From positions 2,232,001 through 2,296,000 of the forward strand of contig CP054189.1 in the NCBI GenBank assembly GCA_015709495.1: a stretch of DNA of 64,000 nt, written 5' to 3'. Below, piece by piece: positions 33,709 through 35,156 of this stretch (position 1 is the first letter of the stretch; every line of letters begins with the position of its first letter). The position numbers were made by a program, and so were the translations under genes. The notes under the pieces are model-generated. The model searched no databases, was not told the DNA's origin, and saw only the letters and a list, made by a program, of their open reading frames with translations. Source of the stretch: Chthonomonadaceae bacterium. GTDB lineage: Bacteria > Armatimonadota > Fimbriimonadia > Fimbriimonadales > Fimbriimonadaceae.

Positions 33709-34356
33709 ATGAAGATCGGCGAGCTTTCCCATCGAACAGGGATCAGCGTCTCCGCGATCCGCTACTACGAACGCCAAGGACTCCTTGGCGAGCCTGAACG
33801 GAGCGAGTCGGGGTACCGCAGCTACGGCGAGAGCGACGTTGAGCGGGTGCTCTTGATCGCTTCGGCCAAGAGGCTAAGGTTTCCGCTGAAAACGATCCGG
33901 CTTTGCCTAGAAGTTCTCGATGGCGGGGAAGAGCCCTGCAGGGAGGTCGCAGCCATTGTTCGCAAGCGACTTGCCCAAATCGAGTCTGAAGTCGCGGAGT
34001 GGAATCGGCTCCGAATGGCCCTGCGCCAACGGCTTCAGGCGTACGAAAGCGGTTCGCTGGACGCCGAGAACGCCCTTTGCGCGATTCTGGGGGCTGGCCC
34101 GATCTTCCCTAAGGAGAACACCATGAGCACAATCGAAGTCTTTACTGCCGGATGCACGAACTGCGACGAAGCGGTGAGCATCGTCAGAGAAGCCGTCTCG
34201 ACCTGCGGATGCGAGATTCGCGTGCTACCGGCCGATGGACCCGAGGCCAAGTCGCGGGGGGTTACGCTAGCGCCCTGCATTTGGAAGAACGGCGAACGCG
34301 TCTTCTGCGGAGTGCCTTCGAGAGCAGAAGCGATCGCCCTGTTGCGGGAGGAGTGA
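33709..34356 (+). CDS. MerR-family regulator fused to a thioredoxin-like CxxC domain
   Basis: 215 residues. Residues 1-70: MerR winged helix (MKIGELSHRTGISVSAIRYYERQGLLGEPERSESGYRSY). Residues ~80-125: dimerisation helix (CREVAAIVRKRLAQIESEVAEWNRLRMALRQRLQAY). EEPC and ENALC could be two of the three mercury ligands of MerR; the middle Cys is replaced by Gln. From residue ~140: a thioredoxin/glutaredoxin-like fold with GCTNCDEAV (CxxC), TCGCEIRVLPAD and a conserved APCIWKNGERVFCG. An ATG at codon 139 (34123) is preceded by AAGGAG at 6-nt spacing, so the second domain may also be made alone. Autoregulation is suggested by the promoter at 33669. Confidence 0.88.
   Translation: MKIGELSHRTGISVSAIRYYERQGLLGEPERSESGYRSYGESDVERVLLIASAKRLRFPLKTIRLCLEVLDGGEEPCREVAAIVRKRLAQIESEVAEWNRLRMALRQRLQAYESGSLDAENALCAILGAGPIFPKENTMSTIEVFTAGCTNCDEAVSIVREAVSTCGCEIRVLPADGPEAKSRGVTLAPCIWKNGERVFCGVPSRAEAIALLREE
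34111..34116 (+). promoter_or_regulatory. Internal ribosome-binding site before the thioredoxin-like domain
   Basis: AAGGAG followed by 6 nt and ATG (34123) exactly at the start of the second domain of the MerR fusion. This suggests a former gene boundary or dual translation. Confidence 0.6.
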
Positions 34357-34360
34357 GTCA

Positions 34361-34576
34361 ATGGGTGAGCGCATTTCCAACCTCGTGTGCCCAAGCTGCG
34401 GCTCGGTCCGGCTGGCGATCGTCCCTCCGGACGTCTGAGTGCTGGCTTTCGAATGCGTCGCGTGCGGCGCGGTTTCTCGACCCTTGCCTGGCGATTGTTG
34501 CGTGTTTTGCTCGTATGGGGACGTGCCGTGCGATTCCCAGCCGCCGTCAACCTCTTCAGAACGGACGGACGAGTGA
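34361..34576 (+). CDS. GDCCVxC-domain protein, probable selenoprotein (Sec at codon 26)
   Basis: Read through the TGA at 34436-34438 as selenocysteine, the protein is 71 residues: MGERISNLVCPSCGSVRLAI, PPDV-Sec-VLAFECVACG, PGDCCVFCSYGDVPC. The zinc-ribbon-like CPxCG and the GDCCVFCSYG signature define the family. Its usual members read TDAC-x-x-x-Y-EC at this place, so the TGA replaces a conserved Cys. GGGAGGAG precedes the ATG and overlaps the merR stop. A hairpin CGTCG-CGTG-CGGCG (34454-34471 with outer pairs) has its loop 22 nt after the TGA and a G at loop position 2, fitting bacterial SECIS rules. The alternative is a nonsense mutation. Confidence 0.72.
34454..34471 (+). promoter_or_regulatory. 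Candidate bacterial SECIS hairpin (GDCCVxC gene)
   Basis: Stem TGCGTCG / CGGCGCG (7 pairs including G-U) with tetraloop CGTG, loop starting 22 nt after the in-frame TGA. Confidence 0.5.
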
Positions 34577-34604: not shown

Positions 34605-35156
34605 TCACCTGGGCGGCATGTCGTCTTCGAGCTCAACCCCAAGGCCGTCGGCCACCCGATTGATGTAATTGAAGTAGCCTACGACCTGCACGATGTCGGA
34701 AATCGCCCGGTCGGACAAGCCTGCAGCTTTCAGCTGCGTGACGTCGCTCTCAGCGATCGATCCGGGCGACAGAGTCAGCTTTTCCGCGTAGGCGAGCATG
34801 GCCGTCTCGGCAGCGGAAAGGGTTTCCGCGCCTCGCCAATCCGTGCAAAGCGCTTGAACCGTGGATTCGTCGACGCCCTCCGACCGGAGGTCCTCCGCAT
34901 GGGCCCACACTCAGTAGTGGCACGCGTTCGCCCGAGAGACGGCCACCGCGATCATCTCGCGCTGGGCTCTGCTGAGGGGTGAATCCCCGAACATGACCTC
35001 TCGGTAGATGCCCATCGACGCTCGAAGCTGGCGCGGGGCCAAGCTAGCCGCTTGGACGACGTGAAACACCTTGCCGGCCCGTTTGCGCGCCTCCTCATAG
35101 AGCCGGGCGAGCTCGCCCTCGGCTTCTTCCTCAGGCACGAATCGGATGTAGGGCAT
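34605..35156 (-). CDS. AhpD-like peroxidase-related protein, probable selenoprotein (CxxU, Sec at codon 82)
   Basis: 183 residues if TGA 34911-34913 is read as selenocysteine. Start ATG 35156 (MPYIRFVPEEEAEGELARLY). The N-terminal half has FHVVQAASLAPRQLRASMGIYREVMF and LSRAQREMIAVAVSRANACHY. The TGA follows, then VWAHAEDLRSEG and, further on, LSAAETAMLAYAEKLTLSPGSI and IVQVVGYFNYINRVADGLGVELE. This is the carboxymuconolactone-decarboxylase/AhpD peroxidase-related family, whose redox motif is CxYC-x-x-H. Here it reads C79-H-Y-U82-V-W-A-H, i.e. CxxU. Both halves are strongly conserved and in the same frame. Convergent with the GDCCVxC gene (28 bp between stops). Confidence 0.8.
34885..34897 (-). 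promoter_or_regulatory. Candidate bacterial SECIS hairpin (AhpD-like gene)
   Basis: On the minus strand CGGAG-GAC-CTCCG, loop beginning 18 nt after the TGA with G first. GCCC and GGGC further out could extend it. Spacing and apical G agree with bacterial SECIS elements. Confidence 0.5.

What the first reader, a model, noticed from the sequence alone, without database searches (positions are those of the whole stretch)
34605..35156. AhpD-like peroxidase-related selenoprotein with CxxU redox motif
Two strongly conserved halves of one family member lie in the same frame, separated only by TGA. The TGA falls exactly on the second Cys of the family CxYC-x-x-H motif (C-H-Y-U-V-W-A-H). A small hairpin (CGGAG-GAC-CTCCG) has its apical loop 18 nt after the TGA with a leading G, as known bacterial SECIS elements do. 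A random nonsense mutation would rarely hit this one codon with this codon type.
Basis: partly seen in the sequence, partly recalled or inferred. Interest (0 to 1): 0.8.

Follow-up and report, generated by a model that had tools for sequence, protein, structure and literature searches.

The report
AhpD-like CxxU selenoprotein gene
This is a real gene for a selenocysteine-containing, probably antioxidant protein in an Armatimonadota bacterium that has the full selenocysteine machinery, but this selenoprotein family was already catalogued, so it is a sound but ordinary new member.

Summary
Confirmed. On the minus strand, 35156-34605 is a 183-aa peroxidase-related (TIGR01926, AhpD/CMD superfamily) gene with an in-frame TGA at 34913-34911 (codon 82), exactly on the second Cys of E-x11-C-x-x-C-x3-H. 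The genome has tRNA-Sec(UCA), selA, selB and selD, and selD itself carries a TGA at its catalytic residue. The same codon is TGA in 38 of 80 homologous loci fetched from public genomes across several phyla, including every one above 38% identity; more distant members have Cys. Both halves are under purifying selection, and in this order the TGA form occurs only in selA-positive genomes (8 of 8, against 60 of 113 overall). The overlapping hairpin CCTCC-GGTC-GGAGG, loop 25 nt after UGA, is kept with compensatory changes. A 2026 review already lists 'AhpD-like protein, TIGR01926, CxxU' as a selenoprotein family: new member of a known kind. A second selenoprotein gene, GDCCVxC (NF041374, TGA at 34436-34438), lies next to it, convergent. 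Decoding and enzyme activity are inferred, not shown.

The parts
34605..35156 (-). CDS of AhpD-like peroxidase-related selenoprotein, 183 aa, ATG start, TGA (Sec) at codon 82, terminal TGA stop
34911..34913 (-). in-frame TGA read as selenocysteine (U82), second Cys position of E-x11-C-H-Y-U-x3-H
   Evidence: TGA or Cys codon at this site in the homologues that align over the motif
34875..34892 (-). best-supported bSECIS-like hairpin: GACCTCC-GGTC-GGAGGGC; core stem CCTCC/GGAGG, loop GGTC 25 nt after the UGA
   Evidence: register kept in 24 homologues, with compensatory changes
34361..34576 (+). neighbouring convergent selenoprotein gene, GDCCVxC domain-containing (seleno)protein, 71 aa, TGA at codon 26 (34436-34438)
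   Evidence: NF041374 69.6 bits; TGA conserved in a second genome of the same species

Best explanation
A chromosomal gene for a small AhpD/CMD-type thiol oxidoreductase of the TIGR01926 'peroxidase-related' family, whose second active-site cysteine is selenocysteine (Cys-His-Tyr-Sec). UGA at codon 82 is decoded by SelB with Sec-tRNA(UCA), helped by a SECIS hairpin just downstream. The Cys-x-x-Sec pair most likely reduces hydroperoxides or passes electrons through a selenenylsulfide, with the conserved Glu and His of the E-x11-C-x-x-C-x3-H motif as proton relay. Shown here: gene structure, conserved TGA/Cys position, purifying selection on both sides, presence of the decoding machinery, conserved hairpin. 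Inferred: actual decoding, the redox chemistry, the substrate and the electron donor.
For: Machinery: tRNA-Sec with anticodon TCA (74 bits), selB (351 bits), selA (443 bits), selD (349 bits), whose own catalytic residue is encoded by TGA (MVRCAGUAAKLGP, read by hand). Family: TIGR01926 E 2.7e-45, CMD Pfam domain, solved relatives 6k40, 3c1l, 2oyo. Conservation: TGA at the same codon in 38 of 80 public-genome loci, including all above 38% identity, Cys in the more distant ones. Selection: against a second genome of the species dN/dS is 0.016/0.053 before and 0.027/0.302 after the TGA. Co-occurrence: 8 of 8 genomes of the order with the TGA form have selA against 60 of 113 overall (Fisher p = 0.005), and a congener without selA (G071) lacks the gene. 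Hairpin.
Against: No protein-level evidence. The folding energy of the SECIS region is ordinary for its composition and no Rfam SECIS family is hit. No clear Shine-Dalgarno is visible before the ATG; the start is assigned by homology. The co-occurrence test ignores shared ancestry, and two of the eight genomes are one species. Some of the paired changes in the hairpin fall within one phylum and may be single events.
Confidence: 0.96

Rival explanations
1. A nonsense mutation or sequencing error: a pseudogene of a Cys-containing AhpD-like protein.
For: TGA differs from TGC/TGT by one base; a single genome alone could not exclude it.
Against: The same TGA is present in an independent genome of the species and in dozens of homologues in many phyla, and the 3' half is under purifying selection with dN/dS about 0.09.
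Confidence: 0.01
2. UGA is reassigned to an ordinary amino acid throughout the genome (e.g. Trp), so the codon is nothing special.
For: None found.
Against: This gene and its neighbour both end in TGA; long genes around are open under table 11; homologues have Cys, not Trp, at the site; a complete Sec system is present.
Confidence: 0.01
3. The protein is a selenoprotein, but its role is not peroxidase-like: for example another CMD-family reaction, or a metal- or selenium-handling role linked to the adjacent MerR and GDCCVxC genes.
For: The function of TIGR01926 is untested here ('peroxidase-related'); a metal-type MerR regulator with a thioredoxin-like tail and a Cys-rich selenoprotein lie next door.
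Against: The neighbours are convergent, not one operon; the GDCCVxC gene is not found elsewhere in the order whereas the AhpD-like gene is; the E-x11-C-x-x-U-x3-H spacing is that of AhpD.
Confidence: 0.2

Closest known systems
AhpD-like selenoprotein, TIGR01926 'peroxidase-related enzyme', CxxU (listed in PMC13188914, example MCB9421940.1)
   Same: Same NCBIfam family, same CxxU motif
   Different: This copy is in Armatimonadota, a phylum that review does not mention
AhpD-like selenoproteins of the Sargasso Sea and GOS surveys (PMC1088965, PMC2398784; COG2128, CxxU)
   Same: AhpD superfamily, CxxU, predicted SECIS downstream
   Different: No direct sequence comparison was run with those records
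AhpD (TIGR00777) of the AhpC/AhpD peroxidase system
   Same: E-x11-C-x-x-C-x3-H spacing, AhpD core domain (TIGR00778, 52.8 bits)
   Different: Only 29 bits to TIGR00777 against a cut-off of 192; Tyr in place of AhpD's inner His (from general knowledge of AhpD); Sec in place of Cys
NF041238 alkylhydroperoxidase-related (seleno)protein with CFYUT motif
   Same: Sec family of the same superfamily
   Different: 74 bits against cut-off 175; that model is 357 positions long and is matched only over 136-339

Membership tests
TIGR01926 peroxidase-related enzyme | whole-protein score above the curated cut-off | tested here: met
   154.3 bits against 81.8, model positions 2-176 of 178
TIGR01926 peroxidase-related enzyme | E-x11-C-x-x-C/U-x3-H active-site motif | tested here: met
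   QREMIAVAVSRANACHYUVWAH, aligned to solved relatives
bacterial selenoprotein | selA, selB, selC, selD in the genome | tested here: met
bacterial selenoprotein | Cys or Sec codon at the TGA position in homologues, coding selection on both sides | tested here: met
bacterial selenoprotein | bSECIS: loop 3-9 nt, stem 4-16 bp, G in first two loop positions, 16-37 nt after UGA, energy at most -7.5 kcal/mol (model of PMC13188914) | tested here: met
   CCTCC-GGTC-GGAGG, loop GGTC at 25 nt, -12.0 kcal/mol for the 25-nt stretch; conserved with compensatory changes
bacterial selenoprotein | selenium in the expressed protein | not testable with these tools
   needs 75Se labelling or mass spectrometry
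AhpD (TIGR00777) | score above curated cut-off | tested here: not met
   29.1 bits against 191.95

The most novel reading that the evidence does not exclude
The close relatives form a subfamily that is Sec-only (no Cys form found above about 38% identity, spread over at least six phyla), so its chemistry may need selenium; and the adjacent convergent pair of selenoprotein genes with a MerR-thioredoxin regulator may be a small selenium- or metal-responsive locus.
Probability: 0.15. Interest if true: 0.4.

Novelty: new member of a known kind. Interest (0 to 1): 0.22.

Why it matters
It adds a secure selenoprotein to Armatimonadota (no paper holding both 'selenocysteine' and 'Armatimonadota' was found in the library), in a gene that ordinary annotation would split in two at the TGA. 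The apparent Sec-only distribution of the subfamily makes it a usable case for asking when Sec cannot be replaced by Cys.

Tried and rejected
Plus-strand reading of 34605-35156: not the coding strand. Rfam search for a SECIS match: none. RNA folding energy against shuffles: uninformative. A second tRNA-Sec model hit (428304) is tRNA-Ser(CGA). L027 (G066) and L124 show TGA in the aligned frame but not in the motif and were not counted. Pseudogene and code-reassignment readings rejected (see rivals).

Full report
Observation. The gene lies on the minus strand, complement(34605..35156), 183 aa with one in-frame TGA at codon 82 (34913-34911) and a terminal TGA stop. Under table 11 it appears as two abutting ORFs. 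The protein scores 154.3 bits to TIGR01926 'peroxidase-related enzyme' (cut-off 81.8), 52.8 bits to the AhpD core domain TIGR00778, and matches the CMD Pfam domain. It aligns to solved relatives 6k40, 3c1l and 2oyo with the TGA on the second Cys of the CxxC motif.

Decoding machinery. The genome (2.9 Mb, one contig, 99.6% complete) has a tRNA-Sec with anticodon TCA, selB at 351 bits, selA at 443 bits and selD at 349 bits. The selD frame contains one TGA; read by hand from the sequence it lies in MVRCAGUAAKLGP, the catalytic Cys/Sec position of SelD (identity of that position from general knowledge). UGA also serves as the ordinary stop of both this gene and its neighbour, so the code is not globally reassigned.

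Homologues. Of 80 homologous loci from public genomes, 38 have TGA at this codon within the C-x-x-U motif, among them every locus above 38% identity; the rest, more distant, mostly have Cys there, and a few do not align well over the motif. The TGA forms come from MAGs titled Armatimonadetes, Marinimicrobia, Planctomycetes, Chloroflexi, Gemmatimonadetes, Latescibacterota and Acidimicrobiales. The window's order includes a genome (G006) whose homologue matches L049, titled Armatimonadetes, so the source is taken to be Armatimonadota. In a second genome of the same species the TGA is kept, with dN/dS of 0.016/0.053 upstream and 0.027/0.302 downstream; against three relatives from other genera of the order (L021, L022, L049) both halves are 62-70% identical with near-saturated synonymous change. 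In 113 genomes of the order the TGA form occurs in 8, all with selA, against 60 of 113 with selA overall (p = 0.005, relatedness ignored). The congener G071 lacks both.

SECIS. An overlapping, mutually exclusive hairpin with stem GACCTCC/GGAGGGC and loop GGTC, 25 nt after the UGA, is kept in register: 90.3% of cells paired, 4 of 6 pairs with changes on both sides, covariation 0.250 against 0.138 in shuffles (0 of 500) and at most 0.109 when slid; RNAalifold on its own picks the same core. It satisfies the bSECIS rules quoted in PMC13188914: loop 3-9 nt, G in the first two loop positions, 16-37 nt spacing, at most -7.5 kcal/mol (-12.0 for the stretch). The 24 were chosen because their best hairpin lies in this register; another subset of homologues (e.g. 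L024, L025, L070-L072) has its hairpin nearer the UGA, loop at 17-20 nt.

What is known. PMC13188914 lists 'AhpD-like protein, TIGR01926, CxxU' as a prokaryotic selenoprotein family, and AhpD-like CxxU selenoproteins with predicted SECIS elements go back to the Sargasso Sea and GOS surveys (PMC1088965, PMC2398784). This locus is therefore a new member of a known kind; the likely function (peroxide reduction or redox relay) is inferred from the family and is untested.

Neighbour. Ending 28 bases from this gene's 3' end and convergent to it, 34361-34576 (+) encodes a 71-aa GDCCVxC domain (seleno)protein (NF041374, 69.6 bits, cut-off 40) with TGA at codon 26, kept in the second genome of the species and not found elsewhere in the order. 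Just upstream of it is a MerR-family regulator with a C-terminal thioredoxin-like domain (33709-34356).

Noticed in passing
window 34361-34576 (+): Second, unreported selenoprotein gene: GDCCVxC domain (NF041374), TGA at 34436-34438, with a hairpin whose loop starts 22 nt after the UGA; TGA conserved in another genome of the species, gene not found elsewhere in the order.
   Followed up: partly
window 33709-34356 (+): MerR-family (Zn/Hg/Cd-type) regulator fused to a C-terminal ArsE/MTH895-like thioredoxin domain, 4 bases upstream of the GDCCVxC selenoprotein gene.
   Followed up: partly
L017 (G000:C1:924933-925838): selD of this genome is itself a selenoprotein gene: TGA in MVRCAGUAAKLGP at its N-terminus.
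   Followed up: partly
L023 and L042 (genome G006): A genome of the same order carries two different TGA-containing AhpD-like paralogues (64% and 40% identical to this one), with SECIS hairpins at different distances from the UGA.
   Followed up: no
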